From: Isoetes taiwanensis
Lineage: Eukaryota; Streptophyta; Lycopodiopsida; Isoetales; Isoetaceae
NCBI GenBank assembly: GCA_021234155.1
Contig: JAJEKV010000191.1
Span: 1 to 64,000 of the forward strand
Direction: 5' to 3'
Length of the DNA: 64,000 nt
Position numbers and translations under genes: made by a program. How positions within the stretch are numbered: the first letter of the stretch is position 1; each line of letters opens with the position of its first letter. Below the pieces are notes generated by a model. The model was not told where the DNA came from, made no database searches, and saw only the letters and a list, made by a program, of their open reading frames with translations. Positions 27,738-51,400 of this stretch are shown one piece after another.

Positions 27738-30700
27738 TTTAAACCTCGGTTCTCGGAGATTCTACAAAATCCAACCAGTCCCAACCGCTGGATCGAGAGG
27801 TTATTTCGCATAACCTCTCGAATATCCCCTTTCAAGTATATGTCTTATTATTCACCTATATATTTTTTACAGGGTTTATACCTTTTGTTTTAAGATTGAA
27901 TATGAACCATTGATCTCCGGCATATGGAGCATCATGCTAAATCAATGGCTGACAAATTTTGGCTTGTAAAATCGTATGAAAAACACAAAGGTCCTTGTAA
28001 AACCCTCCACCATAGCCGCCACAATATGGGAAAAGGTATGGGCTAAAAAACCATGGTTTTGACAAACTTTTGGAGATCCCTATTCTCGCTCACCGGGAAG
28101 CAATGGAAGACTCCAGGTCCATGCAAACCCGGGAATGATGGAACCCTTCCCTGCTTCCTTCGAGGCATGGAATATTTTGGTTCTTGACTTTTGGTTCTCA
28201 AACTTAAGACATAGCGAGGGCAAACTTCCATTTCCTAAATACCGACCACGGAGAAAGGAACCTCCACTTTAGAGCTCAAGAGACCCGAAATTCAAAGGCT
28301 CGGGGAACCGCGAATTTACCTCAAATTTAAAATTCCTTAAAAACAATCTTTGGATTAACTTTTACGGCGAAATGTAGCTCATTGGATCCACGAACGTGCC
28401 AAACTCTCCAACAAAGGGTTGGATCAATGTGTTTGTTTGCCAACTACAATGCGGGGAATATGAAGAGCCAAGCATTTACCCTTGGTTTGTTTATCAAGAT
28501 CCCGTGATATTATGAAGAGCCATGCATTGGTTTCAACTTGCCCTTTCCATCGCTCCGGTTCTTCTAAAAAGCCTCGAAGCTAAAAGCAAGTTGTGACAAA
28601 CCCTATCCGCCCACATTTTAGCACGTCAAAATTCCTCTACAATGAACTTGCAAACACATTAAAATTAGAAACTAGACCACTAAATGGAAACAACCCCTTT
28701 TTGCTCAAACCTCCAAAATATACCATTTTTTATACAAACGGTCCTCAAAATCATAGTCCTAACCACTCGATTCCCAAATACCAAACAAAAATCGCAGAAG
28801 TTTATCCCCTTTCAAGTATATTCGGTGATTATCGTAATAACTTCCGGATATTCGACCTTCACGATACCTTCAAGCCACCATAGCGCCGCAAGACATAGAT
28901 TACGTGGGCGTTTCGAGTGCGGATCGATGCTTATCAAAAAAATGAAGCCTTGTATCATAGTATGAAAAACACAAACATTGACCTCCTACCATGGCAGACC
29001 ATTCATGCGGAAAAGCCTTTTTAGAGCTAAAAATAATACGGTTTTGCAACCAAACTTTTGGAGAGCTATTAGGCATTAGATGGAATATTTTGGAGTCCAT
29101 GCAAACTCACGAATGATGGAATTACTTCTCCCGCTTCCTTTCGAGGCATAATCACTTTGCTTTTGGTGATTTGGTTCTTGACTTAAGACATAGCGAGCTT
29201 TTAATTGACCCGCTTAATACCAAGGCCCGAGAAAGGAAGGGAGTTTGGAAACAAGAAAGCCGAATTCAAAGGCTCGGGAACCGCAGGTTACCTCAAATTT
29301 AAAATTCCTTAAAAGAAATTTGGATTCTGTTTTTCGGCGAAGAAGCCATAACTTCTGAGATGGTAGCGAGAGGAGAAGGAAGGGTTGGATTTAATGTGTT
29401 TATGATCTTGATTCGTCTACAATGCGGGAAGTCTGCTCCTCCAAGCATTTACCCTTGGTTTGTTTATCAAGATCCACAATTATTCAAGAAGAGCATGCAT
29501 TAGATTTGCCTTGCCCTTTACATCCGGTTAAGGTTCTTCTATGAATAGGCGAGTGTGACAAAGCTATGAAGGAGGTCAAGGCGTGACAAAGGAACCTCCT
29601 CCGCGTGTCGCCAGGTTTTAGGAGAGGTCCAACCTTCCCTTATCGGGATTCATGTTAACATAAACCGCCCTCGGATTCCTCCCGGTCGACCATTGGATCG
29701 AGGTTATTTGCCATAACCCGCCATGAGAGGAGGGTTAACCTCCTCTTCACACCATTGGTTACGTTATCTTAAACCTACATCTCCGGAGATTCTACAAATC
29801 CAACCAGTCCGGCCGTTGGATCGGAGAGGTTATTCGCGCATAACCTCTCGAATATTATCTTTTCAAGTATATTGGTGATTATTGTAATAACTTCGGGATA
29901 TATGAAGAACCTTACCTTCATGTTTTGCCTTAGCACGCTTTAGCCCGCCCAACCACGGCTTCTGGGCGTTTCGAGTGCGGGTATGATGCTTATCAAAATG
30001 AAGCCTTGTATCATAGTATGAAAAACACAAACACCGCCGACCTCCTACCATAGCCGACCATTCATGCCGAGAAAAGCCTTTTTTAGGGCTAAAAATAATA
30101 TCTGATTTTACATCCAAACTTTTGGAGAGCTATTAGGCATTAGATGGAATATTTTGGAGTCCATGCAAACTCTAATGACGGAATTACTTCTCTGCTTCCT
30201 TTCGGAGGCATACTCAATCAACTTTTGGTGATTTGGTTCTTGACTTAAGACATAGCGGGGCTTTTTTTATTGACTTAATCCAAGGCCATGAGAGAGGATG
30301 GGAATTTGGAAACAAGGAGTCGAATTCAAAGGGCCAAAGAAGAACCGATTTAAGCTCCAAAATTAAAATTCCTTATAAGAAAATTTGGATTCTGTTTTTC
30401 GGCGAAGAAGCCATAAATGTAAGGCATGAGAGAGAGAAGAAGGAAGGGTTGGATTTAATGTGTTTATGATCTTGATTTGTCTACAATGCGGGAAGTCTGC
30501 TCCTCCGGGCATTACCATTGGTTTTGTTTATCAAGATCTACAATATTCAAGAAGAGCGGGCATGGCAACGACCCGTTTGCCTTGCCCTTTAAATCGAGTT
30601 CGGTTCTTCTTCTATGAAGCTATGAAGCAAAGTGTGACAAAAGAACCTCCTCGGAGTTGAGGTTTATGGAGGTCAACCTCCCTCTTCGTGGAGTCATGGC

Positions 30701-33700
30701 AACATAACACCTTTCGGCCTCCTACCGTGGGTTATCTGCCATTTTAGAGCTTCGAGGAGTTAACCTCCTCTTCACAACATTGGTTACGTTATCTTAAACC
30801 CGGCTCCTCGGAGATTCTACAAATCCAACCAGTCCGGCCGTTGGATCCGAGAGGTTATTTCCAAAGCATAACCCTCGAATATGCGGTTATTTGCCATGAC
30901 CGTTGGAGAGGGAGGGTTAACCTCCTCTTCACAACATTGGTTCACGTTATCTTAAACCTCGCTCCTCGGAGATTCTACAAATCCAACCCGGTCCGATAAA
31001 GGCCATTGGATCGGAGAGGTTATTTTCGCATAACCTCTCGAATATTCCCTTTTCAAGTATATTGGTGATTATTGTAATAACTTCCGGATATTTGTTGATG
31101 AAGAATATTATTACCTTCATGTTTTGCCTTAGCCGCCATAGCCGCCCGCTGCGGCTTCTCACGGGCGTTTCGTGGTGCGAGTTTGATGCTTATCCAAAGC
31201 GAAGCCTTGTATCATAGTATGAAAAACACAAACAACGCCCGACCTCCTACCATAGCCGACCATTCATGCTTTGGAAAAGCCTTTTTAGAGCTAAAAATAA
31301 TACGGTTTTCGTCCAAACTTTTGGAGAGCTATTAGGCATTAGATGGAATATTTTGGAGTCCATACAAACTCTGAATGACGGAATTACTTCTCTGCTTCCT
31401 TTCGGAGGCATACTCACCGCTTTTGGTGATTTGGTTCTTGACTTAAGACATAGAAGGTTTTAACAGCCGACTTAATACCAAGGCCATGAGAAAGGATGGG
31501 AATTTGGAAATAAAGGGGCGAATTCAAAGGCTCGGAACCGCATTTAGCTCCAAAATTAAAATTCCTTAAAAAATTTGGATTCTCTGTTTTGCGAAGAAGC
31601 CATAAAATCAGAGGCGTGCTTGAGAGGAGAAGGAAGGGTTGGATTTAATGTGTTTATGATGCAGATTCATCTACAATGGAAGTCTACTTCTCCAAGCATT
31701 TACCCTTGGTTTGTTTATCAAGATCCACAATTATTCAAGAAGAGCATGCATTAGGCGCCTTGCCCTTTACATCCGATTCGGTTCTTCTATGAAGCTATGA
31801 AGCTATGAAGCGAGTGTGATAAAGGAACCTCCTCGAATCGAGGTTTAAGGGAGGTCAACCTTCCTTTATCGCGGGTCATGGCAACATAACCCGTTCGGCC
31901 TCCCGACCTCGTGTGTTATTTGCTATAACCCGCTCGAGGCGAGGGTTAACCTCCTCTTCACACCATTGGTTACGTTATCTTAAACCTCATTTCCTCGGAG
32001 ATTCTACAAATCCAACCAGTCCCGACCATTGGATCGAGAGAGGTTATTTAGATAACCTCTCGAATATCCCTTTTCAAGTATATTCGGTGATTATTGTAAT
32101 AACTTCACGGATATTTGTTAACCGAAGAATATTCGATTACCTTCATGTTTTGCCTTAGCCGCCATAGCACAGCTGCCGCGGCTTCTCACGGGCGTTTCCG
32201 TGGTGCGAGTCCGATGCTTATCCAAAGCGAAGCCTTGTATCATAGTATGAAAAACACAAACACCGCCGACCTCCTACCATAGCCAGGCCAGTTCATGCGA
32301 GAAAAGCCTTTTTAGAGCTAAAAAAATACGGTTTTGCGTCCAAACTTTTGGAGAGCTATTAGGCATCGGATGGAATATTTTGGAGTCCATGCAAACTCCT
32401 GAATGGCGGAATTACTTCGGCTTCCTTTCGGAGGCACAATCTTTGCTTTTGGTGATTTGGTTCTTGACTTAAGACATAGCGGGCTTTAAGCAGTCAAACT
32501 TAATGCCAAGGCCATGAGAAAGGATGGGGAATTTGGAAATAAGGGCGAATTCAAAGGCTCGGGGGCCGGATTTAGCTCAAAATTAAAATTCCTTAAAAGA
32601 AAGCTGGATTCTCTGTTTTACGGCGAAGAAGGCATAAATCACGAGGGTGTAGCTTGAGAGGAGAAGGAAGGGTTGGATTTAGTGTGTTTATGATCTGATT
32701 CATCTACAATGCGGGAAGTCACGCTTCTCAAGCATTTACCCTTGGTTTGTTTATCAAGATCCACAATATTCAAGAAGAGCATGCATTGGTGCCTTGCCCT
32801 TTACATCGATTCAGGTTCTTCTATGAAATTTGTGAAGCTATGAAGCAGAGTGTGATAAAGGAACCTCCTCGGATCGAGGTTTAAGGGAGGTCAACCTTCC
32901 TCTATCGCGGGTCATGGCAACATAACCCGCTCGGCCTCCCGACCTCGCGTGTTATTTGCTATAACCCGCTCGAGACGAGGGTTAACCTCCTCTTCACACC
33001 ATTGGTTACGTTATCTTAAACCTCGGTCCTCGGAGATTCTACAAATCCAACCAGGTGGATCCGACCGTTGTTGGATCTGGAGAGGTTACCTCTCTTTTTG
33101 CATAACCTCTCGAATATTACTTTTTCAAGTATATTCGAGTGATTATCGTAATAACTTCCGGGATATTGATACCTTCACATTCATGCGCCTTAGCGCCATA
33201 GCACGCGCTACAACGGCTTCGTGGGCGTTTCGTGGTGCGGGTCGATGCTTATCCAAAACGAAGCCTTGTATCATAGTATGAAAAACACAAACACCGCCAG
33301 CCTCCTACCATAGCCGACCGTTCATGCCAGAAAAGCCTTTTTTAGAGCTAAAAATAATACAGTTTTGCATCCAAACTTTTGGAGAGCTATTCCGGCATTA
33401 GATGGAATATTTTGGAGTCCATGCAAACTCTGAATGCCGGAATTACTTCTCTGCTTCCTTTCGGAGAGGCATACTCACCGCTTTTGGTCATTTGGTTCTT
33501 GACTTAAGACATAGCGGGCTTTTAACAGCCAGCTTAATTCCAAGGCCCACGAGAGAGGCAAGGGAATTTGGAAACAAAGGAGTCGAATTCAAAGGCCGAG
33601 CAAGCCATGATTTAAGCTCCCAAAATTAAAATTCCTTATAAGAAAGCTGGATTCTCGTTTTGGCGAAGAAGCCATAAACTTGCAGAGGCGTGCTAGCAGG

Positions 33701-35286
33701 AGGAGAAGGAAGGGTTGGATTTAATGTGTTTATGATGCAGATTTGTCTACAATGCGGGGAAGTATGCTCCAAGCATTTACCATTGGTTTGTTTATCAAGA
33801 TCCACAATATTCAAGAAGAGCATGCATCGGGCGCCTTGCCCTTTAAATCGGTTCGGTTCTTCTATGAAGCTGTGGAAGCTATGAAACAAAGTGTGACAAA
33901 AGAACCTCCTCGGATCGAGGTTTTAGCGGGAGTCAACCCTCCACTCGCGGGTCATGACAACATAACTTTTTCGGCCTCCGGCCGCGGCGGGTTATCTGCC
34001 ATCACCGCTTCGAGATGAGGCTTAACCTCCTCTTCACAACATTGGTTACGTTATCTTAAACCTGGCTCCTGGAGATTCTACAAATCCAACCCGGTCCCGA
34101 GATTTGGATCCGGATAGGTTATTTCGCATATAACCTCGAATATGTGGGTTATTTGCCATGACCCGTGAGAGGGAGGGTAAACCTCCTCTTCACAACATTG
34201 GTTACGTTATCTTAAACCCTCGGCTCCTCGAAGATTCTACAAATCCAACCGGTCCGTGGTTGGATCCAGAGAGGTTATTTCAAGCATAACCTCTCGAATA
34301 TTCCCTTTCAAGTATATTGGTGATTATTGTAATAACTTCCGGATATTTGTTGGCGAAGAATATTAGTACCTTCATGTTTTGCCTTAGCCCCATAGCACCG
34401 CAACCACGGCTTCTCCGGATGTCTCGAGTGCGAGTCGATGCTTATCCAAAAGCGAAGCCTTGTATCATAGTATGAAAAACACAAACACCGCCCCCTCTAT
34501 CATAGCCGGCCCGTTCATGCCGGAAAAGCCTTTTTAGAGCTAAAAAAATAATACGATTTTGCATCCAAACTTTTGAGCGGCTATTCCGGCATTAGATGGA
34601 ATATTTTGGAGTCCATGCAAACTCTGAATGACGAAATTATTTTCTGCTTCCTTTCGGAAGCATACTCACTGCTTTTGGTGATTTGGTTCTTGACTTAAGA
34701 CATAGCGAGGCTTTTGTTATTGACTTAATTCCAAGGCCACGAGGAGGGGGAATTTGGAAACAAAGGAGTCGGAATTCAAAGGCCCGGCAACGATTTAAGC
34801 GCCAAAATTAAAATTCCTTATAAGAAAATTTGGATTCTACGTTTTTCGGCGGAAGAAGCCATAGCAGAGGCGAGTGCAGAGGAGAAGGAAGGGTTGGATT
34901 TAATGTGTTTATGATGCGATTTGTCTACAATGCGGGAAGTACGCTCCTCCAAGCATTTACCATTGGTTCATTTATCAAGATCCACAATATTCAAGAAGAG
35001 CGGGCATCGCGCCTTGCCCGCTAAATCCGGTTCAGTTCTTCTATGAAGGCGTGAAGCTATGAAGCAAAGCGTGACAAAAAGAACCCCTCGGATCGAGGTT
35101 TAAGGGGAGGTCAACCCTCCACTCTCGGGGTCATGGCAACATAACACTTTCACCGGCCTCCCACGCGGAAGTTATCTGCCATCACCCCTTCGAGATGAGC
35201 TTAACCTCCTCTTCACAACATTGGTTCACGTTATCTTAAACCTCGCTCCTGGGAGATTCTACAAATCAACCGGTCGGCCGTTTGGA
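27738..35286. repeat. Satellite array, left part (first monomers to insertion)
   Basis: Direct tandem repeat. Using the conserved block around ACTTAAGACATAG as anchor, copies are at 29,181; 30,243; 31,441; 32,467; 33,502 and 34,693, plus a diverged first copy at 28,202. Spacings are 979, 1,062, 1,198, 1,026, 1,035 and 1,191. The first copy is strongly diverged, with rearranged segments between 27,840 and 28,560, as expected at an array edge. Open frames of 60-120 codons recur in several monomers, but they are short, differ between copies and match no family I know. The array runs on after the retrotransposon at 48,451. Confidence 0.95.
27794..27820. repeat. Perfect hairpin motif, first of a series in the array
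   Basis: The arms CGAGAGGTTAT and ATAACCTCTCG flank the loop TTCGC: an 11-bp perfect stem here. The same motif, with 9-11 bp stems, occurs once in each short monomer and twice in each long one, for example near 58,672, 59,691 and 59,847. Confidence 0.9.
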
Positions 35287-36921
35287 TGCGGCCGGTCGAG
35301 GGAATATACGCCATAAATCGTATATTCACGGATCCGTCACCATACAAGAATCTATCTTCATAGCCTTGTATACCATAGATTGTGGCACTAGGGGGCATGG
35401 CTAAGTTATTCTCATAGCTTAGCCAACCATAGGTTAAGCCATTATCCATGTGGCCTTAACCTATTGGGGGCACCGCCACCGCAGGGACTCACCGATTGGT
35501 GCCCGTGGCATCCTAGGTGGACCCTAACTTATATAGGCATAAACCCTAACCCTAGACCTCCTTTCCGGCCCTAGCACCCGAGAGACTCACCTACTTGTTG
35601 AAACCCCGTTTGAACATGGCTCGTTAATGGCATAGGGCTGGAGCGGCCAGCGAGGTAGACCCGATTCTTGGAGGAGGAGCGGCGCCTTGTGAGTGAAGAC
35701 TATGGGGCCCGGATCCGGAGGGAGAGCATGGGAGGCGGTATGTAGGATAGTAGTTGTGATAGCTCATGCGGAATTAGCAATCCGGATGTGCTAGTATTTT
35801 GTATCTAGAGTAGAGCCATCCTAGAACCCATATTCAACATCTTGAACCCTAATCAAGGAACCCTAACTATTAGTTGGTTGTATGATTAGGTTAAGATGTT
35901 CTTCTTATGATTATTCTCATGATGATTATGTGATGATGGTTGATCATGTTTGCTCCTCTTGTATTGGGGCCGGGGGTAGAGACCTAGAGCCATATGTAGT
36001 ATGCTCCTAGAGTAGATCCCTTAGTTCTGTTAGATCCTGACACATTGCATAGGAGCCCACCGGGCTATTGAGGCTATGATATGACTCAGCACGAGATACT
36101 TGAGGGGCTAGAGGGAAAGTGGAGGAGGATCCCCGCCGAGTGGGGGGCTTAGGGGGATCCCATAGTGGGCTAGGCCTATGGTGGGTCACCCGTGTGGGCC
36201 GAGCATGGGTGGACACCTCTGGGGCAATGGTGTTGCCCGCCTCCCAGAGCTGCAAGGGAAGGCTTGGCTCTCGTTTTGGGGGTTCAGTCGGGTACGAATA
36301 GGTGTGTCGCCGCGATTCTCTAGCCGCCCACGGCACCTCTAGATCACGGGAAGGGGAGATGCAGCCCTTCCTCGCCTCATCCGGACCGAGGAGATGCGGC
36401 CTGGGTAGTCCCGATGGGTGATACCATGGGATTGCGTTTCGGAAGGCTAGAGTCTGTCGTGAGCCTGATCTAGCCCATCGCAAAGTATGCAGGGAGGGGC
36501 GGGATGGAGTGGTCAACCCTAGCCATTGTTCTATGCCAGCCACCGCCATTGCCATGACTCGGTCAGTGCTCTATCTTGAGGCCAGGCAGCGGTCGATCCA
36601 CCCTCCTTATGAGTGCGAGCAGGGGTAGGAGCTCTCTGTTTTATGGTTGGTGATTATCATCTATGTATTGGTTTATAATGCGATGCACTACCCTCCGAGG
36701 TAGTATTTGTGTATGTTTTATGCTAGTTCTCGGCGTGTTATCGCCATTTGTTATAAGACCCATAGGGGAAGAGTGGCGCCAAAGACACCTTAAGTATTCC
36801 CTCCCGCACTAGGAGTTACCTCGAGAGTGCGGGGGGTAGAAGAAAGCCCCCATCACGGTGTCGAGCGGATGGGGGATTTCCTGGGTATCTGGTGGCCCGT
36901 ATGTTTAGCGGGGGCGTCACA
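35287..36921 (+). repeat. 5' LTR of the nested chromovirus
   Basis: Begins TGCGGCCGGTCGAGG and ends GGGCGTCACA. It aligns along its whole length with the 3' LTR. Long stretches are identical (for example around 35,865-35,950 against 47,400-47,490), separated by short clusters of differences. The 182-codon minus-strand frame at 36,007-36,555 lies inside the LTR and is not conserved in the other copy. Confidence 0.95.
35529..35556 (+). promoter_or_regulatory. LTR TATA box followed by telo-box-like motif
   Basis: TTATATAGG (35,529-35,537) is followed at once by AAACCCTAACCCTAG, a telomere-like motif known as a telo box in plant promoters. Both are kept in the 3' LTR (about 47,065-47,092). This is the likely start region for element transcription. 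Confidence 0.6.
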
Positions 36922-37453: not shown

Positions 37454-38180
37454 TTGCTTGACCCTTCGTCACCCGTTTTACGAACCATAAGATATGGCCC
37501 GCACCAAACAAACTTACGGGAGAGGATTGGACCAAGACCTAATCTCTCCATGGCGCAGCAAACAGGGCTTACATGTAAAGAAGATCCCGAACACCTAATC
37601 GAAGAAAGGGGAAGAGGAGCTTTCCCCGCCAGTATATGCCAGCCAGTTGGTGCCAGCCAAGCCTCATACCATGACGCCCAGGAGAGTCCCAAAGACCAGC
37701 GCCCTCCATCTGCAGGCACTCGTGAGGACCGGCGAGACTCACACTGGCCCCTGACACCCAGGTGGAAGAAGAAGGGGAGGAGCAGCGCCAGCAACAGGGA
37801 GGGGAAGGGCCTTCTGGTCCCAAGGAAGAAAGGTAAGGGAGAAGGTCACCTGAGTGGCCGAGGAGAGGGCCGCCAGAAGAAGCTTGAGCTGAGAGGGGAG
37901 CTGAGGGAGGAGAGAGGAGAACGAAGAGAAGGAACGACGGGCCTCGGGCCGGACCGCCGCTATTCAAGAGCCACGGCCTAAGAGGAGCCGCAGTGGGAGG
38001 CAGAGGGAGGAGGAGGAGGGGCAAAGACGACCCGACGCGTAGGCCACCCTACCCTAAGTGGGCCAGGAACCACCTAAGGTGGTGAAGAAACAGAAGGTAG
38101 GGGAGGGCATTCATTACCCGGCGGGACAGGAGTTCAAGAGAAAGATGGTGGCATACAAGGACACGCCGTGTTGGGCGAGG
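37454..38180 (+). pseudogene. Gag-like N-terminal region
   Basis: Frames here are highly charged and low in complexity (EEQRQQQ, GPKEER, GRGEGRQKKLELRGELREERGERREG), as in chromovirus Gag N-termini. A start codon at 37,494 opens MARTKQTYGRG; this frame stops after 34 codons. A 175-codon frame (37,454-37,981) covers most of the stretch. Near 38,080-38,190 another frame reads VVKKQKVGEG...FKRKMVAYKDTPCW. The capsid core is not recognisable. The first seven residues equal those of histone H3, but the rest of this part does not follow H3. Confidence 0.5.
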
Positions 38181-38184
38181 TACA

Positions 38185-38587
38185 ATGAGTGTGTATTGCC
38201 GGGAGGTCAGCCAGCGTCGTAGTGGGGGGCGTGACCCAAAGAAGAACCAGCCCAAGCCACCCACCAAGGCGGAAAAACCCGAGGGTTCTGCAGACCAGGC
38301 CAAACAGCACATACTGGGGTGTTTAGGGGAGATTCGGCACTTCCGGATGTGCGCGAATCTCGATAAGGAGCGCCCGCCAGGCGTCTCCTTAGGGGGAGGT
38401 TTTACTTGGCGATTCGGGGGCCGGACTGAGGGGTAGCCCCTCTAATGGCCCAGGGCTCTGCAAAGAGGCCTCCGGTGCTGAGTGCAGCTCTTGAGGGGAA
38501 ACCTCTAGCGCCATCCATGCTAAGCGGGTAACCCTTATGCCTAAGGATATCCACTTGGCGCGGAGGATCATGAGGGGAGAGGCCCTA
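38185..38587 (+). pseudogene. Histone H3-like sequence inside the retrotransposon
   Basis: The end (38,511-38,585) reads [20 protein letters not shown] then MRGEA, nearly the invariant C-terminus of H3 ([20 protein letters not shown], RGE). Going upstream in H3 order: DNA close to that for EDTNLC at about 38,490, LQEA at about 38,455, D-x-x-x-x-L-R at about 38,413, and EIRHF at 38,326 (H3 LREIRKY; CENH3 often EIRHF). From EIR to the end the length equals that of H3. The opening frame (MSVYCREVSQRRSGGRDPKK, later PTKAEK) has GG, P-K/R-K and TKA where the H3 tail has them, and its ATG is 6 bp from the predicted H3 start. The frame shifts after 38,400, with at least one stop. RVTLM and EIRHF hint at a CENH3-type source. 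Alternatively, GCLGEIRHFRMC could be a degraded Gag zinc knuckle joined to a shorter H3 fragment. Confidence 0.62.
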
Positions 38588-38589
38588 GG

Positions 38590-41500
38590 GCCTCAAATTT
38601 TGTAAATTTTGTAGAAGAACTAAAATTTTCATGTAATCATGTTCCTCATTAATATAAAAGTTCTTTTCCTCAGAAATTGTTCTTGAAATGTAGAAAATAG
38701 AACCCAATTCGGTAGAATTCTTCATAGCATGTCTAGAAATACCCGAAATCATGACTACAACAAAATTTTGGCAAAAAAAAAAAAAAAAATCATCAAAAAT
38801 GCAAAAATTGGGGCCGGTCGGGTGAGACCCGCGCCAATGGCCTCTAGCGTCCCAAGCCTTGGCGGCGTTTTTCAGCGGATTCACCCCGCCTACCCCCTAA
38901 AACTTGCTTTTTAGATGTGGAGTTTGCACAAAATAAGTTGCTAGTTAGGTTAGAATTGGCCCAATTAGCCATATTAGCATCTTCAAATTTCCTAAAATGA
39001 CCAAAAATTGGCCCAAAAGCAGGCCAACGGGTGAGACCCGCGCCAAACGCGTCTGCGTTCATGACGGAGGCCATCCGCTTGCGGATTCACGGGTCGGCCA
39101 TCTTTGGCCCGAATTAGCCAAATTTGATCCAACAAATTGCCATGTAGTGTTTCTTGCTTTGTTTTGCTTAAGTTTGCACTTCATGGTAGTTCATTTGGGA
39201 CACCGAGCCATAGAACCAAGGTCGTCTTAGCTAACACCTTTTTGCACAAATCCGGGGTCACCCATAGTCTATAAAAAATAGGTCTCATTTGCCATTTTTC
39301 TTCCTACAGAATCGCCCCTGGCCTTTTTAGGCGATTTTCGACCCTCCACCGATCTTTGCAAGACATTTTCTACACCCTTTCACCTCAATGGCGCCCAAGC
39401 AACTTTGAGATGGTATAATGCTTTGCTAGCCATATCCATGTGCTTCCGGTAGATCAAGCTTTCTCGTGGTTTGATCACTTGTTTGATCTTCACGCAACCT
39501 TGACTAGAACACCCTACTACACGGCATATTATGTGCCGGTATGACCCGGCAGATCCCGCCTTTGGGAAGTTAGGCGCCTCCTAGGGGAGGGTGGGTTTCC
39601 GCCAGGACACTTTACCCAAGCTTTAGGTCGAGAGCTGGTGGGGATCGGAGGCAAGAAGCAACTATGGGATAGGACTAGGACCATGCAGATTACATGACAC
39701 AAGCAGACATAATAAACCTGGTACCTTCGGCCAGACAGCCCTTGCCCTCTTCATGCATTATAAATCAATCAACAAAGTAGGGGGGAACCCTCAATTCAGC
39801 CCTTAGACTTAGCGCCACTTTCGATGCCGTAGGGCCCGGGATCAAATCCACGAATATAGAGTCCTCCGCCTACGAATACTACTAAACCGCGCGTCGGCGC
39901 ACCATCTCTGAGATCCATGAAGACTCGCTGGCAGCTGGGGAGCGTAACCCAGAATGGGAGAGCGAGGAGGCAACAAGAATGCGGAGATATCGCCGGGGCA
40001 TGGCGACGGCGAGAATCCGCTACTCGATCCACCAGTCCCGGCATCACAGCCTTGTCGCCAATAGTCATCGACGGGGAGGAGTACATTTTTGCAAATGACA
40101 TCCTCAATCTGTCCTACTGTCAGGAACAGGGTCTTCGAATCGACGAGCTCTTGGGTATGATAGCACACCTGAAGAGACATCATCGACTACTCATACCGGG
40201 AGATCCCAAGGAGTCATGGAGAGACACTCTATGCCTGGGAGACAATGTCGGATATAGCGACCATCACAGATAAGAGAGATCTATCGACAAAGAGGAGCCT
40301 ATCATCTCAGAGGAGGAGTTCAAAGAGATACTGAGCACACCTACAAACCAGCAAGGGCCCAAGCTCAAGCCCAGGCCGATTCGAGCGAGCATGAGGAAGG
40401 GTCCAAAGAAAGATTAACTTGGACAACGCAAAAGGGTATGTGGAGATCATGAAGACCTTATGGCGGTGGATGCCTATGGCTGGGCAGCTCAAAGGAAGTG
40501 GCAATCGATCGCGGCATTAGGGAAGGGGGCAAAGATCTTTAGCTATCTTCCAAAGGGGGCAAATGATAGTCTTCCACAAGGAGTTCAGCCTAAGGGGGAA
40601 GAATGGCGGCACTTCTCATAGCGCTTTGAGGCCGGGCAAAGCACTCAAAGATATCTTCATACCGAATACATCATCCTTTCAAACAGGCAGGCAGTGGCGG
40701 CTCCATTGCCTCGACCAAGAGAGGACACTGAGGATGCAACACTTTCAAGGTGCAGCAAAGAATAAACACTGCAACTCCTTTAACCGTGAGATGGCCCGGC
40801 AGCACTTGAAGGAAGATCAACGAGGAACATCTTATGCCAACCTCGGAAAAGGCCTCCGGGTCCAGGGGATGTCAAGAACTTCTTCGTGACTTTCGAGGCC
40901 ATCTAATAGTTGCAAAAAATTTCTTGGGTTTAAAATTTCTTAAGTTTGTGCTAAATGTTTCTTGTACCCATTGTGCTAAGATACATCCGCTTTATTATGT
41001 AATCCTTATGTATTAATGACTATTAACTGGTTTGTCAATGTAAGGCTTTGTATGATTTCTTATAACTAAAGATAATTCAATTTGCAAGTAAAATTGATCA
41101 ACATCTAACCTAAATAAAATGTATTGATGACCAATCCTTGCAAGAAAGGAACTCAAGGGCGGGATCCCAAGATCAAAGACCGCATAATTGGGTACCAAGG
41201 AATTTGTTTGGCAAAGGAACAAGAAGATGTTGAGCGGGATATGTCACCAGAGTGATCAACGCCAAGGTTGGTGCGAGATGAGGAATCGATGCAACACCTC
41301 ATCAACTGGGCGACACCTCTCATGAATGCAGGGAAGATGGTCACCCACCTCCACCTTGTTTTTTAGAGGGGGTGACGAAGTCCCTCAACCAGAAAGGGAG
41401 GGCAACCCGTGGGAACGCCGGGGATAGGAGAAGGAAGAGGAGAGCCAGGGGAGCCCATCATCATCCAGCAAGGCTCCATCGTGCGCAGTTCTTCCAGTGA

Positions 41501-42560
41501 GGAGGGATCTCTAGCTCCGAACAAATCGGTCGACACACCTAAAGCAGTGGGAAAAAGAGCAAGAAAGACGGTGTGATTATCGAGAAAAAGGTGGATAGTG
41601 CTACCATGGCAATGCATGGAAAAAACAGGAAGCTCGCCGGCCTCGGGAAGCGACGTATCGGGCATGGAGGCTGAAGCATGGCTTGATGAAATGGAAGAGT
41701 TTGGCAACTCATACTCGGTATGAAAGACAAGGACATAGGGAAAGTTGCTACAACCTAACCTTATTGGACCAAGCAAGGATCGGGTGGAAGGATATGCTAA
41801 ATCCAACAAGTCAAGAGGAACAACCCAAAGTTTGGGGACCTTCGGCCAGAGGCTTCCTCAAAGCACTATGTGCCAAGGTCTCATACTAGTAGACAGATCC
41901 AAAGAGTTTTACAAAGTTGAATCGGGGGTAGCTTATCGATTGGCTAAGTATAATTTAAGAATTTATGAGGCTGTTTGAATGTTCCCGAGTCTCGGAGGAG
42001 TAGCGTGGATACTTTTTACATTGAGGGGTTGAACGGCAATATCAAGAGGTTTGTCAGAGCAATCAACCCAAGTCACTACAGTCAAGATAAAGCTATAAGT
42101 TTGAAGAGGTAACCAAGAACTCCAAAGTACAGAGAAGCAAATAACCTTCAGTGGTAAGAGAGCCCTGTATGCGATCGTGTGGACACATCGGGGAAAAGCA
42201 ATCGCAGCTATAGCTCTTACACCACATCGTGTGGGAGAGTCGAAGCAGCGAAGGTAAGGGTCGAGCAAAGCTTTGGGGGACCGTGGTTACGTAACGCATC
42301 GTAAGGCCATTTTGCCGCTTCCTAGACACCGCCAAGGAAAAGAGATGAATGCATTGAGAAAGTTATGCTTGGTGCTTCGAAAAGCGGCACCTGGGACACA
42401 TGATTGTCCATTCGTCATCTGCAAATACTTTGTGAGGAATCCCTTGGATTGGGACTCCCCCAAATGGCCCGGACAGGGACGATGACCAAGCGGGGGGACC
42501 CACGACTTCATAGATGGTGAGTGTTATGATATGTGCAAACATTGAGTCGGATGAGATAGA
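38590..42560. other. Long interior stretch between H3-like part and protease
   Basis: About 4 kb that does not read as standard gag. Near 39,270 TATAAAAAATAGG resembles a promoter. At 39,917-40,273 (+) a 118-codon frame contains ITALSPIVIDGEEYIFANDI and LRIDELLGMIAHLKRHHR. At 42,273-42,485 a frame reads KLCLVLRKAAPGTHDCPFVICKYF. These look like protein, but I do not recognise them. A second, older element nested between gag and pol would explain both the foreign reading and the unusual total length. Confidence 0.4.
38811..39110. repeat. Two diverged copies of a GGGTGAGACCCGCGCCAA block
   Basis: The block GGCCGGTCGGGTGAGACCCG (from about 38,812) and its relative GGCCAACGGGTGAGACCCGC (from about 39,022) are both followed by CGCCAA, GCC-rich sequence and CGGATTCAC. 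The spacing is about 210 bp. Poly(A) of 18 bases precedes the first copy at about 38,772. Confidence 0.6.
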
Positions 42561-42639: not shown

Positions 42640-45600
42640 AATTTTGCATCTCCTAGATTGGGCTGCTCTAATGAAGAACAAGGTATTGAAGTCTAAGCCA
42701 AGGCCCGTGCTATATAAAAGCCGGCCATCCCAAGAGCACTGCCGGGGGAGGAGGATCACCTTTGACATAGACCTTAGTGGGGCTAAGTGGCGATGGGAGC
42801 GTAAGTCATGGATATTGGAAGGTATGATCTTATAGTGGGGATGGAATTTTTGAAGCGGCCCAAGCCATGATTGATTGCGGCCCAGGAATAAGATCACCAT
42901 GGCGGCACGGGCAGGCTGACAAGTTGATAGTGTGAAGGTAAGCTAGAATCCCCTATGCGGTGTATTTCTTTGAAGGCGGCTAAGGAAGAGTATAGAAAGG
43001 AAAGGGTGGATTACATCTTGAGGATGGAATCCCAGTGGAGCCCGAGCAAGCCCGGGATGGAAGGTGACACAAAGGAAATCCCGGTTTGCCAGGCGATATG
43101 CAAGCTTATTGCACGGGGGGATGTATTTCGGATGAAATCCGCATTTCTCCTACCTATAGGGGTGTGGAATGTGAGATCACATTGGCTCGGATCTGAAAGA
43201 CCGATAATGCGCCATATAGAATGAGCATCCGGTAATTGGCCCGAAGGCTCAGAAAGCAGTGCGAGGAATTGCTCGAGCTTGGATTTATAAGAGCAAGTGT
43301 GTCTCCTTTGAGACACCTATACTCTTTGTCAAGAAGAAAGATGGGAGCTTAAGAATGTGCATAGACTATCGCCCAGCTCAATAGCGAGGCGATAAAGAAT
43401 AAAGTATGCATTAGAGGCGGATGACCTAATGGATCAGCTACAAAGGAGCAAAGGTATTCTCTAAGATTGATTTAAGATCGGGGATACCATCGGATAAGAA
43501 TAAAGGAAGAGGACATCCATAAGGCTGCTTTGAGCGGTATGGTCATTTTGAGTTCTGATGACACCCTTTGGATTGCCGAGCGGCTCCCCTTAGCGTTCAT
43601 GCGCCTCATGAGCGATATCTTGAGACTTCTTGGATGAGTTTGTTATTGTCTTCAACCGGCGACATCCCTAATCTCCAACAAGTCCCTTGAAGAGCATTTG
43701 GCATCTCGAGGGAAAGTGTTAGAGAAGTTGAGGCGTCGCCGGTTGTATGGGAAGCTCTCTAAGTGCCGCCGCCTTGGTAGGGTGGAGTACTTGGGGCATG
43801 TAGTAACATCAGGGAATCTCCACGAGATCCATCTAAGATTGAGGCAATAGTTGATTGGCCAGCTCAAGGAATGTGGATAAAGAAGCTTTCGGGTTGGCGG
43901 GATACTGAAAGTTAAGTGAAGGACTTTGCTAATTAGAGCGTCCCCTCGTAGGACCTCACTAAGGCCAACAAGATTAAGGGCTGGGCTAGACATTGGTTAG
44001 AAAGTCAAGCTTCTTTTGAGAAGCTTAAAGAGGCCTTAACTACTTGACACGGTGCTTGTCCTCCGGATCAGAGTAAGGATAAGTTGGTAGCAAGCGGATG
44101 CAAGCAAGATATAAGGTGATCTTGATGCAAGAAGGAAGGGTAGTAAGCCCTACATTTCGAAGAAGATGAGCGGCGCAGCAACAGCATGCAGCCCCACGAT
44201 CGGGAGGCTGCTGCTAGCCATTGTCGAGGGCATTGAGGATATGGAGGCATTATCTGTTTGGGAAGGAAGTTTCAGTTGGATCCGTGAGAGCCTTGCATTA
44301 TCTTTTCCTTGACCCACCTCCTCAACTTAAGGCAAAAGGAGGTGGATGGAATTCCTTGAGGAGGTATGATTTTTGATATTATATATAAGCTTTGGTAAGT
44401 TTAATGTTGTATGAGATGCCCTCTCGAAGACCATTTCGGACAAAAGGACGCATTGTAATGCGATTTCCACTCTTTCAGTGAGTTTGGCAAGAAGATTGAG
44501 GAGTCCTTGCCAACCGATGTGGACTTCGAGGGAGGTATGGGAAAGCCTTTTCTGGGGAAGCGAGCAGAATAAGGAGCGGGAAGCCTTCAAGCATTATAAG
44601 AAGGAAGGCAACTGTTGTACCACAAGCATAAGTTGTGTGTGCGAATCTTGGGGGTAAGGAAGTTAATTCTTCATGACACACATAATAGCCCAATAAGCGG
44701 GCATGCTGGCTTCATGAAGACATATTTCAAGATTCAGTAGCTACTTCGGCGGGAATGAAAGGGAGGAGATAGCTGCATATATTGAGGATTACCGGTTATG
44801 TCGTGGGACCAAAGCGGAACAACCGGTTCCGGTGCTTTGGAGCCATTAGGGGTGCAAATGCAAAGTGGGGAGGTCATAAGCATGGATTTCATCAGGACTC
44901 CCTAGAACTCTTGAGGCAAGGATGCATTGATGGTTGTAGTAGATAAGTTATCTAAGATGGCACATTTCGTGCCTTGCAAGGCGCAGGACACGCATTAGAC
45001 AGACCCAAGTTATTTGTAAGGGAGATTTTTAGACTCCATGGCATGCCTCGGGGAGATAATATCTCGATAGAGATTCTAAGTTCATGAGTGCCTTTTGGCA
45101 GGATCTCTTTAGCACCATCCGCACGGCTCTCCATGAGTGCGGCATATCATCCCCAAACAGATGGCGAGGCGGAAAAGGGCGAATCGGATCATTGAAGACA
45201 TGCTTGAAGCTATGTGTGGAACAAGCAGTCCAAGTGGGATGAGTACATTCACTTGGTGGAATTAAGCCTACAACGGTGCCAAGCGAGGAGTCATCTCGGA
45301 TGTAAGCCTTTCATGGTGAACTATGGCTACGCTTAACCCCGGGATACAGCACAATCCTGTGTCCAAGGTAGAAGTGTCCCAAAGAGATGTTAGGGGATAT
45401 CTGGCTGACTAGTAGAGGAAGTAAGGGGTTATTTATTGGCAGCAAGAAGTCGTAAGAAAGAGTGTAGCCCGGCAAGCATCGGACAAATAAAAAGGGGAGT
45501 TTAAGGTGGGAGATCTGGATTTGGTTGAAGATCAAGGTGAAGCAAAGCCAAGGTGCCCGGATTGGGAGCTGCAAGAAGCTTGCCCCTAGGTGGGGGCTGG

Positions 45601-45920
45601 GCGTTCAAGATTTTAGAGAGAGTGGGCTCTCAAGCCTACAAGATTGGATCTTCCGGCCCATCTTAAGGTCCACAAGGTCTTCCGTAAAGTTTATTAAAAG
45701 GCACAATCCTAACCACGAGGAGGGTTTGGATACTCCAACCTTGTTGGAAATGGAGGAGCAAGTAGAAATAGTGCGAGTTACTTCTTGATAAGTCATTCAA
45801 GAAGACTAGGAGGTCTCAGTTCCTCCAATATTTGGTTAAGTGGAAGTACTTACGTGGAAGATCGCGACATGGGTATTGAAGCAAGATTTGGAGAAGCAAT
45901 ACCCCGAGGAGTTCATGAAG
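42640..45920 (+). pseudogene. Chromovirus pol: protease, RT, RNase H, integrase, chromodomain
   Basis: Broken frames on the plus strand keep the order of a chromovirus pol. Protease end: YDLIVGMEFLKR (about 42,822-42,858). Reverse transcriptase: ELLELGFIRAS, FVKKKDGSLRMCIDYR (about 43,325-43,372), VFSKIDLRSG (43,454), TPFGLPSG (43,563), VEYLGHVVTS (about 43,785). RNase H region: SFEKLKEALTT (about 44,011). Integrase: zinc-binding HNSPISGHAGFMKT (about 44,681), catalytic KDALMVVVDKLSKMAHF (44,917-44,970), AYHPQTDGEAE (about 45,141). Chromodomain: QYLVKWKYL (45,826). The characteristic FIDD catalytic box of RT is not readable. Frameshifts are frequent and often at GC-rich CNG sites, so part of the damage may be sequencing error. 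Confidence 0.9.
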
Positions 45921-46818: not shown

Positions 46819-46829
46819 TAGGGGAAGAA
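46819..46829 (+). promoter_or_regulatory. Polypurine tract of the nested chromovirus
   Basis: TAGGGGAAGAA directly precedes the TG that opens the 3' LTR. Confidence 0.8.
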
Positions 46830-48450
46830 TGTGGCCGGTCGAGGGGGAATATGTCAGCCGCCATCGTATATTCCACGGATAAATCACCATACAAGTCTAT
46901 CTTCATAGCCTTGTATACCATAGATTGTGGCACTAGGGGCATGGCTAAGTTATTCTCATGGCCATAACCATAGGTAAGCCATTATCCATGTGGCCTTAAC
47001 CTGGTTGGGGGGCCACCTGGGACTCACCCGATTGGTGCCGCGTGGCATCCTAGGTGGACCCTGCTTATATAGGCATAAACCCTAACCCTAGACCTCCTTT
47101 CCAGCCCCTAGCACCCGAGACTCACCTACTTGTTGAAACCCGCTTCGAACATCGCTCGTTAATGGCATAGGCTGGTGCAAAGAGCTGGCCGAGGTAGACC
47201 CGTTCTTGGAGGAGGAACAGCAGCTTGTGAGTCAAGACTATGGGCTTGGGATGCGGAGGGAGAGCATCGGGAGGCGGTATGTAGGATAGTAGTTGTGATA
47301 GCTCATCTCGAATTAGCAATCAGATGTGCTAGTATTTTGTATCTAGAGTAGAGCCATCCCTAGAACCCATATTCAACATCTTGAACCCCTAATCAAGGAA
47401 CCCTAACTATTAGTTAGTTGTATGATTGATTAGGTTAAGATGTTCTTCTTATGATTATTCTCATGATGATTATGTGATGATGGTTGATCATGTTTGCTCC
47501 TTGTATTGGGGCGGGGGTAGAGACCTAGAGCCATATACTTAGTATGCTCAGAGTAGATCCCTTAGTTCTGTTAGATGCGGCTTTGTGCATAGGGCCCACC
47601 CGGGCTATTGAGGCTATGATATGACTACGACACCGGATAACGGGGCTAGAGGGAAAGTGGAGGGAGGATCCTTTTGCCGGTGGGGGCCGGGGGGATCCCA
47701 TAGTGGAAAGCTGAGCCTATGGTGCGGTCGCCGTGTGGGCGAGCATGGGTGGAAACACCTCTGGGGCAATGGTGTTGCCACGCCTCTGGAAGGCTGCAAG
47801 GGAAGGCTTGGCTCTCGTTTTGGAAGGTTGATCGAGGTGCGAATGGGTGTAATAGCCACGATTCTCTAGCATACGGCACCTCTAGATCACAGGAAGGGAG
47901 ATGCAACCCTTCCTGCCTCATCGGACGGGGAGATACAACCTGGAGTAGTCCGATGGGTGATACCATGGGATTGCGTTTCGGAGGAGGCTAGAGTCTGTCG
48001 TAAGCGATCTAGCCCACTCTGCAAAGTATGCACGGGAGGCGGATGGAATTAGTCAACCCTAGCCATTGTTCTATGCCAGCCCTCGCCATTGCCATGACTC
48101 GGTCTGCTCTATCTTGAGGCCTGGCCGGTCAGTCACCCTCCTTATGAGTACGGTAGGGGTAGGCTCTCTGTTTTATGGTTGGTGATTATCATCTATGTAT
48201 TGGTTTTATGTCGCGATGCACTACCCTCAGGAGTAGTATTTGTGTATGTTTTATGCTAGTTACGGCGTGTTATAAGCCATTTGTTATAAGACCCATAGGG
48301 AAGAGCAAAGACACCCGTATTCCCTCCCGCGCACCGGAGTTACCTCGAGAGTGCGGGGGTAGGCGAAGAACCCATCGCGGTTCTTGAGCGGATGGGGGAT
48401 TTCTGCGGAGTATGCGGGCGGGGCAGAAGTATGTTTAGCGAGGGTCCGCA
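46830..48450 (+). repeat. 3' LTR of the nested chromovirus
   Basis: Begins TGTGGCCGGTCGAGG and ends GGGTCCGCA. Homologous end to end with the 5' LTR, including the TATA and telo-box region. The ends TG...CA are kept. Confidence 0.95.
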
Positions 48451-51400
48451 GCGGGATCGAGAGGTTATTCGCATAACCTCCCTAGAGAATATCGCGGGTT
48501 ATTTGCCATGACGTGAGGAGGGAGTAAACCTCCTCTTCACAACATTAATTCACGTTATCTTAAACCCTCAGCTCTCTGAGATTCTACAAATCCAAACCGC
48601 GCCCGCCGATTTGGATCGAGAGGTTATTTCGCATAACCTCTCGAATATTCCCTTTTCAAGTATATTGAGCGGATTATTGTAATAACTTCCCGGATATTTG
48701 TTGGACGAAGAATATTTAAACGCGTTCATGTTTCGCCTTAGCCCCAGCCAGCACCGCCCTTCTACCTGGACGTCTCCGAGGGTCCGAGTCCGATGCTTAT
48801 CCAAAAACAGAAGCCTTGTATCATAGTATGAAAACACAAACACCGACCTCCCTATCATCCTATCATAATCGCTCATGCTTTAAAAGCCTTTTTAGAGCTA
48901 AAAATAATACTGAGTTTGCATCCAAACTTTTGAAGAGCTATTCCTAAGATTAGATGGAATATTTTGGAGTCCATGCAAACCCCGAATGACGAAATTACTT
49001 CTCTGCTTCCTTCGAGAGAGGCATACTCACTACTTTTGGTGATTTGGTTCTTGACTTAAGACATAGCAGGCTTTTACGACAAACTTAATTCCAAGGCCAC
49101 GAGAGAGGCAAGGGAATTTGGAAAAACAAAGTCGAATTCAAAGGCCCACGAAAAACCGCTGATTTAAGCGCCAAAATTAAAATTCCTTATAAGAAAATTT
49201 TGGATTCTCTGTTTCCGGGCGAAGAAGCCATAGCTTAACCGCAGAGGCAAAGTGAAGAGAGGAGAAGGAAGGGTTGGATTTAATGTGTTTATGATGCAGA
49301 TTTGTCTACAATGCGTGAAAGTACGCTCCAAGCATTTACCATTGGTTGGATTTATCAAGATCCACAATATTCAAGAAGAGCGGGCATCGATCGCCTTGCC
49401 CTTTAAATCAGCCTAGTTCTTCTATGAATTTTGTGAAGCTATGAAACAAAGTGTGACAAAAGAACCTCCCCGGACGAGGTTTTAGCGAGGTCAGCCCTCC
49501 ACTCTCGCTGGTCATGACAACATAATAACCTTTCGGCCTCCCCGCGGCGGGTTATCTCTGCCATCACCATTTCGAGATGAGGCTTAACCTCCTCTTCACA
49601 ACATTGGTTACGTTATCTTAAACCTGCTCCTGGAGATTCTACAAATCCAAAACCAGTCCCACTGTTGGATCCGGATAGGTTATTGGCCGCATAACCTCTC
49701 GAATATGTGGGTTATTTGCCATGACTCGTGAGAGGGAGTGGGTAAACCTCCTCTTCACAACATTGGTTCGTTATCTTAAACCTGGCTCCTCGAAGATTCT
49801 ACAAATCCAAATCCGGCCGTTGGATCCGAGAGGTTATTTCAAGATAACCCTCGAATATTCCCTTTTCAAGTATATTGAGTGATTATTGTAATAACTTCCG
49901 GATATTTGTTGTGAAGAATATTCGTACCTTCATGTTTTGCCTTAGCCCCATAGCACTCGCGCTTCAAGGCTTCTCACCGGATGTCTCCGTGGTCCGAGTC
50001 CGATGCTTATCCAAAATCGAAGCCTTGTATCATAGTATGAAAAACACAAACACCGCCACCTCCTATCATAGCCGACCGCTCATGCAGAAAAGCCTTTTTT
50101 AGAGCTAAAAATAATCTGATTTTGCATCCAAACTTTTGAAGAGCTATTAGGCATTAGATGGAATATTTTGGAGTCCATGCAAACTCCGAATGACGAAATT
50201 ACTTTCTGCTTCTTTCAGAGGCATACTCACCGCTTTTGGTGATTTGGTTCTTGACTTAAGACATAGCGGGGCTTTTTAATGACCCAACTTAATTCCAAGG
50301 CCACGAGAGAGAGGCGGGGAATTTGGAAACAAGGGGTTCGAATTCAAAGGCCCAGCAAACGCAGTTTAGCCAAAATTAAAATTCCTTATAAGAAATTTGG
50401 ATTCTCCTCGCTTTTCCGGCGAAGAAGCCATAGCTACCGCAGAGGATGATGAGAGGAGAAGGAAGGGTTGGATTTAATGTGTTTATGATGCGCATTTGTC
50501 TACAATGGTGAAGTCCGCTCCTCCAAGCATTTACCATTGGTTCATTTATCAAGATCCACAATATTCAAGAAGAGCGGGCATCGGTCGCTTTTTGCCCTTT
50601 AAATCCGGGTTCAGTTCTTCTATGAAGCTGTGAAGCTATGAAGCAAAAGCGTGACAAAAGAACCCCTCGGATCGAGGTTTAAGGGAGGTCAACCCTCCAC
50701 TCGGGCGGGTCATGGCAACATAACCTTTTTTTCGGCCTCCCGCGCCGGGTTATCTGCCATCACCGCTTCGAGATGAGGCTTAACCTCCTCTTCACAACAT
50801 TGGTTACGTTATCTTAAACCTCGCTCCTGGAGATTCTACAAATCCAACTAGTCCCCGCCAGATTTGGATCCGAGAGAGGTTATTTCGCATAACCTCTCGA
50901 ATATGGGTTATTTGCCATGACCCGTGAGAGGGAGGGTAAACCTCCTCTTCACAACATTGGTTACGTTATCTTAAACCTCCGCTCCCGGAGATTCTACAAA
51001 TCCAACCGGTCGGCCGTTGGATCCGGAGAGGTTATTTCGCGATAACCTCTCGAATATTCCCTTTTCAAGTATATTCGGTGATTATTGTAATAACTTCAGG
51101 ATATTTGTTGACGTAAGAATATTAAATACCTTCATGTTTTGCCTTAGCCCCATAGCCCTGCCCGCACACGGCTTCTCACGGACGTCTCGGTGCGATCCGA
51201 TGCTTATCCAAAACGAAGCCTTGTATCATAGTATGAAAAACACAACACCGCCAGACCTCCTATCATAGTCGGCCCAATCGCTCATGCCGAAAAGCCTTTT
51301 TAGAGCTAAAAAATACTGATTTTGCATCGAAACTTTTGGAGAGCTATTAGGCATTAGATGGAATATTTTGGAGTCCATGCAAACTCCTGAATAGCGGAAT

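What the first reader, a model, noticed from the sequence alone, without database searches (positions are those of the whole stretch)
38185..38587. Histone H3-like gene captured inside a chromovirus
The C-terminal reading [20 protein letters not shown] cannot be chance. Upstream blocks (EIRHF, D-x4-LR, LQEA, an EDTNLC-like stretch) come in H3 order, and the EIR-to-end length equals that of H3. The sequence lies between the 5' LTR and pol of a Ty3/gypsy element. I know of no described chromovirus family with an H3 domain. If other copies of this element also carry it, the element uses a histone fold, perhaps to enter or mark chromatin. EIRHF and RVTLM hint at a centromeric H3 source.
Basis: partly seen in the sequence, partly recalled or inferred. 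Interest (0 to 1): 0.9.

Follow-up and report, generated by a model that had tools for sequence, protein, structure and literature searches.

The report
Retrotransposon family carrying a histone H3 gene
A family of jumping genes in what is almost certainly a quillwort genome carries its own version of histone H3, the protein that packages DNA; many intact copies keep the histone part nearly unchanged, so the element probably uses it to interact with the plant's chromatin.

Summary
The segment is the end of a broken ~1.1-kb gene (about 37491-38590) between the 5' LTR and gag of a 13.1-kb Ty3/gypsy element. In the same genome (1.658 Gb; fits the published Isoetes taiwanensis assembly) intact relatives encode about 355-460-aa proteins ending in a complete H3 core. 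The window's subfamily (D) starts with H3's own first residues (MARTKQT), then ~260 aa of charged linker, then the core. Subfamily A, and as far as read B and C, has an unknown ~200-aa N-terminal domain instead. Of 20 copies picked by reverse transcriptase alone, 16 had the H3 part upstream, 5 of these with an uninterrupted core. The core is the most constrained part of the protein (pN/pS 0.065 in A, 0.099 in D; other modules 0.22-0.44). An integrase chromodomain supports 'chromovirus'. A CENH3 source is not supported, though not excluded. Best reading: a retroelement-encoded H3 variant that pairs with host H4 and enters nucleosomes; that step is inferred. H3 captured by hAT DNA transposons is published for fungi; eight literature searches found no LTR retrotransposon carrying one. 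The window copy's frameshifts look largely like assembly error.

The parts
35286..36880 (+). 5' LTR of the element
   Evidence: Self-comparison: 35286-36880 matches 46829-48403 at 86.3% over 1647 columns (101 mismatches, 124 gap positions)
37491..38590 (+). ORF1, subfamily D: H3-type N-terminus, charged linker, H3 core; frame broken in this copy
   Evidence: tblastn of the intact L003 ORF1 protein: residues 1-249 at 37491-38213 and 243-363 at 38216-38575; 87 mismatches and 68 gaps (64 frame-breaking) against L003 in 1044 aligned bases. The end at 38590 is approximate
38329..38587 (+).
38591..41584 (+). Region between ORF1 and gag; a second unknown gene (ORF2) lies here in A and B copies, not demonstrated in this copy
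   Evidence: A-type ORF2 did not match here significantly; weak alignments against shuffles only
41585..42127 (+). gag (Ty3-type capsid region)
   Evidence: tblastn with P0001, 32% identity, E 6.5e-9; Pfam of P0001
42604..42852 (+). aspartic protease
   Evidence: tblastn, E 1.4e-9
43125..43625 (+). reverse transcriptase
   Evidence: tblastn, E 1.4e-24
43677..45330 (+). RNase H and integrase
   Evidence: tblastn pieces, E down to 1.1e-49
45772..45920 (+). chromodomain-like end of integrase, broken over two frames
   Evidence: Pieces seen; PF00385 19.3 bits for the first piece, below the 25.1 cut-off; the matching piece of sister copy L044 scores 35.2 bits. The end coordinate is approximate
46829..48403 (+). 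3' LTR

Best explanation
The feature is a broken copy of ORF1 of a chromovirus lineage in which ORF1 encodes a histone H3 variant. SHOWN: many other copies carry an intact ORF1; the H3 core is complete, sits upstream of gag and pol on the same strand, and is the most constrained part of the protein; subfamily D keeps the H3 N-terminus (MARTKQT), while A and B (and C as far as read) have another N-terminal part and a tail remnant in which, aligned to H3 by eye, a proline stands at K9. INFERRED: the protein pairs with host H4 through the conserved core and is built into nucleosomes, on the element's own DNA or around its insertion sites. The extra N-terminal part or linker would then give those nucleosomes an element-specific property, such as poor silencing or recognition by the element's integrase with its chromodomain. 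Identity as an element-encoded H3 variant: about 0.93. Nucleosome entry as the way it works: about 0.5. The anti-silencing purpose: about 0.25.
For: Intact ORF1s. Copies: 150 scored of 8705 candidates for PF00125, 15 of them canonical H3 genes; of the other 135 I fetched and read 38, and all 38 carry the core, one of them with a stop inside it. The D core gave 150 scored hits of 8805 candidates, 85-100% identity. Unbiased by H3: of 20 RT-picked copies (from 150 scored of 25546 candidates), 16 had the H3 part in a 1.5-kb slice upstream, one more had ORF1 with its H3 just outside the slice, and 3 had nothing in the slice. Linkage: among the 150 RT places and the 135 element H3 places there are 20 pairs with H3 upstream on the same strand within 10 kb, 16 of them at 4.57-4.71 kb, none downstream, one on the opposite strand. 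Selection: pN/pS core 0.065 (A, 11 copies) and 0.099 (D, 9 copies) against 0.22-0.44 elsewhere in ORF1. Invariant in all 21 cores aligned, two host ones included: R63, R69, R83, R116, C110, H113, D123, L126, R129, I130 in H3 numbering (numbering counted by hand, roles recalled). A model of the D core, although of low confidence (pLDDT 58.9), matches nucleosomal H3 at E 1.7e-5. D and A are sisters: RT 114/126 identical, PR-RT 60%, start of RNase H-integrase 76%.
Against: No expression, protein or binding data exist here. Copies for pN/pS were chosen by H3 score, which lowers core pN. In the RT-picked set only 5 of the 16 H3 parts gave an uninterrupted 81-codon core by my filter. D has lost F84, Q85 and S86 in loop 1 and K56, so it may bind DNA differently. 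Three of 20 RT-picked copies show no ORF1 in the slice. Nothing in the sequence shows where in the cell the protein goes. The K9 argument fails for D, which keeps K9 in 8 of 9 copies with a readable start.
Confidence: 0.55

Rival explanations
1. The H3 core is used off the nucleosome: as a dimerising or nucleic-acid-packing module of the particle or integration complex, or as bait for H3 chaperones and nuclear import factors.
For: ORF1 lies upstream of gag in the same element; the fusion has large charged linkers; H3-H4, chaperone and import surfaces overlap (recalled), so conservation does not single out nucleosomes.
Against: DNA-gripping arginines and the H3-H3' bundle residues are kept as well (roles recalled), which chaperone binding alone would not require.
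Confidence: 0.27
2. Passenger: a captured H3 gene amplified without function, as described for hAT elements in Pseudocercospora fijiensis.
For: The window copy is broken, and 11 of 16 RT-picked H3 parts gave no uninterrupted core by my filter; in P. fijiensis the transposon-borne H3 copies were reported inactivated (PMC6710886, abstract).
Against: Many open cores, low pN/pS in A and D with synonymous sites far apart (pS about 0.5 in the core), and conserved architecture. Part of the breakage looks like assembly error.
Confidence: 0.08
3. The D-type H3 was captured from CENH3 and acts at centromeres.
For: EIRHF, TNLLI and RVTLM are shared with recalled Arabidopsis CENH3; a D+CENH3 clade is not rejected (p-AU 0.273).
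Against: No loop-1 insertion; identity 56/81 to host H3 against 45/83 to recalled AtCENH3; the best profile matches shown are H3; in the tree D groups with human H3.3 (recalled) at weak support (82/57); the satellite around the window element looks like a local array. The host's own CENH3 was not found.
Confidence: 0.07
4. Not an element gene: a host H3 variant family that elements happen to sit beside, or an assembly artefact.
For: The assembly seems to have many indel errors in repeats.
Against: 20 H3-RT pairs within 10 kb have H3 upstream on the same strand, none downstream, one opposite; H3 is found in 16 of 20 RT-picked copies, and H3 lies between LTRs in the window and in three of four fetched pairs of stretches (LTR identity 93.8-96.7%; no LTR pair was seen in the fourth).
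Confidence: 0.03

Closest known systems
hAT DNA transposons with histone H3-like genes in fungi (Pyrenophora tritici-repentis H3L, PMC3538342, passages seen; Pseudocercospora fijiensis and relatives, PMC6710886, abstract and one section read)
   Same: A transposon has captured an H3 gene, carries it inside the element and amplified it; in P. tritici-repentis full-length H3L genes and ESTs are reported.
   Different: Different class (DNA transposon, fungi). In P. fijiensis the copies are dead by RIP. Here the carrier is an LTR retrotransposon, the H3 part is fused to a new N-terminal part or a long linker, and the core is under purifying selection.
Plant chromoviruses (Ty3/gypsy with chromodomain), including Tcn1-like elements of lycophytes (PMC2864245, PMC3350952, passages only)
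   Same: gag, protease, RT, RNase H, integrase and a chromodomain end of integrase.
   Different: My term look-ups found no extra histone gene there: PMC2864245 has one 'histone' (on marks) and no 'additional ORF'; PMC3350952 has no 'histone fold' or 'additional ORF', and its 11 places with 'histone H3' concern marks or references. Assignment of our element to a named chromovirus clade was not tested.
Plant LTR elements with an extra ORF upstream of gag (Ogre type; recalled)
   Same: An additional gene between 5' LTR and gag.
   Different: The Ogre ORF1 is not a histone as far as I recall; no relation was tested.
Host histone H3 variants such as CENH3 and H3.3 (recalled) and virus-encoded histones such as those of Marseilleviridae and the H4 of bracoviruses (recalled)
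   Same: H3-type histone fold; a genetic parasite carrying a histone.
   Different: Encoded by a retrotransposon as an H3 fusion; one core of each type compared with host H3 gives 69 (A), 71 (B), 71 (C) and 56 (D) of 81 identical.

Membership tests
Histone H3 | Complete H3 histone fold (alpha-N, alpha-1 to 3) matching the family profile | tested here: met
   PF00125: 18 of 18 A/B/C and 11 of 11 D proteins given; D model helices 2-16, 19-30, 39-60, 62-67, 74-83 and match to nucleosomal H3. Model of low confidence. Met by intact relatives; the window copy alone shows only its end
Histone H3 | H3 rather than another histone; residues of DNA contact and of the H3-H3' bundle | tested here: met
   The PDB matches shown are all H3-type (60 of 177 rows shown in each); invariant positions, roles recalled; D departs at K56 and loop 1 (84-86)
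Histone H3 | Assembly with H4 into nucleosomes | not testable with these tools
   Needs biochemistry
Histone H3 | Modifiable N-terminal tail | tested here: inconclusive
   D keeps MARTKQT in 8 of 9 readable starts, MARTKST in the ninth; K9 kept in 8 of 9. In A and B the H3 part is not at the N-terminus; no C protein was read to its start
CENH3 | Longer loop 1 and divergent core | tested here: not met
   D cores have the same length here as canonical H3; recalled AtCENH3 is 2 residues longer in this stretch. Rests on a recalled sequence
Ty3/gypsy LTR retrotransposon | Two LTRs; order gag, PR, RT, RNase H, integrase | tested here: met
Ty3/gypsy LTR retrotransposon | Target site duplication | tested here: inconclusive
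   Edges read; no clear repeat made out
Chromovirus | Chromodomain at the end of integrase | tested here: met
   PF00385 35.2 bits in sister copy L044, though out of frame with the rest of integrase there; 19.3 bits, below cut-off, in the window piece
hAT element with H3 | Short terminal inverted repeats and hAT transposase | not tested
   looked only for inverted repeats of 60 bases or more (none in 28000-50000), too long for a hAT end; no transposase search was made. LTRs and pol are present instead

The most novel reading that the evidence does not exclude
A plant retrotransposon lineage has evolved its own replacement histone H3: it supplies H3-fusion nucleosomes that change how the host chromatin machinery treats its DNA, pairing a histone of its own making with an integrase chromodomain that reads histones. 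Subfamily D does so with the H3 N-terminus kept and set off on a ~260-aa linker; A, B and C do so by swapping the tail for a new part without K9 or K27.
Probability: 0.3. Interest if true: 0.95.

Novelty: new variant of a known kind. Interest (0 to 1): 0.86.

Why it matters
Transposons are silenced in part through marks on histone H3. An LTR retrotransposon that brings its own H3 would be a direct way to interfere with that, and a natural experiment on what the H3 tail is for. It also shows that H3 capture by mobile elements has happened in unrelated element classes and kingdoms (hAT in fungi, a chromovirus in what seems to be a lycophyte), here with selection on the captured gene. It also warns that element copies may be mistaken for histone genes in annotation.

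Tried and rejected
CENH3 origin: looked for the host CENH3 with a recalled Arabidopsis core; the 150 rows scored are 54-61% identical to it, canonical H3 genes first, and none stands out, so the comparison rests on a recalled sequence. Centromere targeting through the satellite: the 1.0-1.2-kb repeat forms an array on this contig (28.4-79 kb), with long relatives (79-83%) on four other contigs and short ones elsewhere (39 of 174 candidates scored, common words skipped); none of the 103 loci matched it, but these lie mostly inside elements, so flanks were hardly sampled. The N-terminal domain of A: no convincing Pfam match, no PDB sequence match (best E 1.3), no fold match (best E 4.2; model pLDDT 55), no relative in viral contigs. 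ORF2: no Pfam match for the one A copy tried; kinship of D and A versions not shown. One capture or several: A, B, C and D together as one clade is not rejected (p-AU 0.461) and not shown. In one search the A group wrongly held the broken D copy L002 and also L039, the same place as L030; the selection figures I use are those, which held neither. Before the trees I dropped L002 and identical cores. The window RT looked only 40-46% identical to A because its frame is broken; an intact D copy gives 114/126. LTR dating was not attempted beyond identities and one K2P of 0.055 because of indel noise. Rfam found nothing in the window at gathering scores.

Full report
What is in the window. The 403-base segment is part of a larger broken gene. 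Its end reads [20 protein letters not shown], matches Pfam Histone above its cut-off over 20 residues and solved H3 chains at E 4e-7. The EIRHF block lies in another frame, 181 bases upstream of AIH against 183 in canonical H3, and has no Pfam match alone. Using an intact relative, the gene can be followed from 37491 to about 38590. It lies between two LTRs (35286-36880 and 46829-48403) and upstream of gag, protease, RT, RNase H and integrase on the same strand, ending in chromodomain-like pieces. The 13.1-kb element sits in a tandem array of a 1.0-1.2-kb unit.

Which genome. The window's assembly has 1,658,258,908 bases in 1110 contigs. The Isoetes taiwanensis paper reports 1658.30 Mb in 204 scaffolds and 909 unplaced contigs (PMC8566536, passages). 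I take it to be that species; no call names it outright.

The copy is broken, but perhaps mostly on paper. Against the intact relative L003 the window ORF1 shows 87 mismatches but 68 gaps, 64 of them frame-breaking, in 1044 aligned bases; six other loci found by similarity to the window copy (L002, L004-L008) show 37-78 gaps, while three loci chosen for intact protein show 3, 4 and 11. So many indels per substitution is what uncorrected nanopore repeats look like rather than ordinary decay (inference; the paper describes nanopore reads polished with long and short reads). Intact copies exist.

The gene in other copies. A Pfam Histone search of the genome gave 8705 first-look candidates; 150 were scored, all over the cut-off. 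Fifteen are canonical H3 genes (L009-L023; cores; one, L009, read in full). Of the other 135 I fetched 38 and all 38 carry the H3 core, one with a stop inside it. Open frames reach 494 aa. A search with the D core gave 150 scored of 8805 candidates at 85-100% identity, with open frames up to 434 aa. Total copy number is not known: candidates were not all scored.

Copies chosen without looking at H3. The RT query gave 150 scored hits of 25546 candidates, all 98-100% identical in protein. I took 20 spread down that list and fetched a 1.5-kb slice 4.1-5.6 kb upstream. H3 was found in 16 of 20; 5 of these 16 gave an uninterrupted 81-codon core by my filter. In one more, L072, ORF1's N-terminal part is at the slice edge and its H3 is the locus L036. 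Three, L070, L075 and L083, showed nothing in the slice. The N-terminal part of ORF1 falls to 29% identity with L043 in some of these copies; why is not explained (recombination or fast change).

Linkage. Among the 150 RT places and the 135 element H3 places, 20 pairs lie within 10 kb with H3 upstream on the same strand; 16 of the 20 distances are 4.57-4.71 kb, the others 2.3, 3.2, 3.5 and 5.3 kb. No pair has H3 downstream, and one is on opposite strands.

Architecture. A-type ORF1 (L030, L043): MPRFKLTVDLKK..., a domain of about 200 aa, a variable charged or glutamine-rich linker, a basic stretch, KHPSTGGKS or similar, then the full H3 core. B has a related layout with a different start (METPKQ...); C was read only in part. 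D type, the window's own: MARTKQTYRKTG or MARTKQTARKYN, about 260 aa of acidic and basic linker with the conserved stretches PPYPKWPEPPK and YLRRWTRYNDWYC, then the core. Nine of the 15 D loci read have a clear start; eight begin MARTKQT, one MARTKST. Downstream come ORF2 (unknown) in A and B, then gag and pol. D and A are sister families: RT 114/126 identical, gag 62%, protease-RT 60%, start of RNase H-integrase 76%.

Selection. Mean pN/pS over 55 pairs of 11 A copies: N-terminal domain 0.223, linker 0.436, basic stretch and tail 0.254, H3 core 0.065. Over 36 pairs of 9 D copies: N-terminal tail 0.388, linker 0.324, conserved stretch before the core 0.229, core 0.099 (uncorrected proportions). 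Mean pS in the core is 0.51 in both, so the copies are not just recent duplicates. The copies were found by H3 score, which biases the core downward; the contrast with the rest of the same proteins and the RT-picked set suggest that the effect is real, but an unbiased estimate is still needed.

What the core keeps. In 21 cores, two of them host H3, the invariant positions include R63, R69, R83, R116 and C110, H113, D123, L126, R129, I130 in H3 numbering (numbering counted by hand). By recalled structural knowledge the first set grips DNA and the second, with R116, forms the H3-H3' bundle. D has changed K56 and loop 1 (R83 kept; F84, Q85 and S86 changed). A model of the D core is of low confidence (pLDDT 58.9) but has the H3 helix pattern and matches nucleosomal H3.

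Source. A, B, C and D are each one group on the tree, B with support short of the starred level. One common capture is not rejected (p-AU 0.461) and not shown; a D+CENH3 clade is not rejected (p-AU 0.273) but identities, loop length and profile matches point to canonical H3. CENH3, CENP-A and human H3.3 in these tests were recalled fragments.

How it may work. Shown: an element gene, intact in many copies, with a conserved H3 core fused to variable parts. Inferred: pairing with H4 and entry into nucleosomes. A specific idea for A, B and C: the H3 part no longer has a free tail; a proline (invariant in the 18 proteins) stands at K9 and the K27 stretch is missing (alignment to H3 by eye), so such nucleosomes could not carry the usual silencing marks. 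D keeps K4 in all nine readable starts and K9 in eight, so the idea does not extend to it as it stands.

Literature. Eight answered searches showed me no LTR retrotransposon carrying a histone gene; one search held 75 papers, of which 20 were listed and two opened, and held five, of which one was opened. The nearest are hAT DNA transposons with H3 in fungi (PMC3538342 passages; PMC6710886 abstract and one section). The two Isoetes genome papers do not contain the word histone in their main text (passages only were seen). The library is open-licence PubMed Central only, so absence there is weak evidence.

Noticed in passing
window 37471-38600 and loci L002, L004-L008: Unusually many indels relative to substitutions in some repeat copies (37-78 gaps in about 1 kb against 3-11 in three copies chosen for intact protein); looks like uncorrected nanopore error in repeats and would make many element genes look dead.
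   Followed up: partly
window 28910-35285 and 48454-62868: Tandem array of a 1.0-1.2-kb unit, split by the element and seen again at 73.7-79.1 kb of the contig; long relatives (79-83%) on four other contigs, short ones elsewhere.
   Followed up: partly
L043:3394-4803, L030:2113-2991, L041:3431-4759: Second gene (ORF2, about 300-470 aa) between the H3 gene and gag in A and B copies; no Pfam match for the L043 copy.
   Followed up: partly
L067-L086: RTs 98-100% identical in protein to the query while the N-terminal part of ORF1 falls to 29% identity with L043: recombination or very fast change of that domain.
   Followed up: no
L003, L087-L100 (D ORF1): Conserved PPYPKWPEPPK and YLRRWTRYNDWYC stretches inside the otherwise loose linker of the D protein; possible binding motifs.
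   Followed up: no
window 6284-6455: Short tandem repeat, 92-base unit, 1.9 copies.
   Followed up: no
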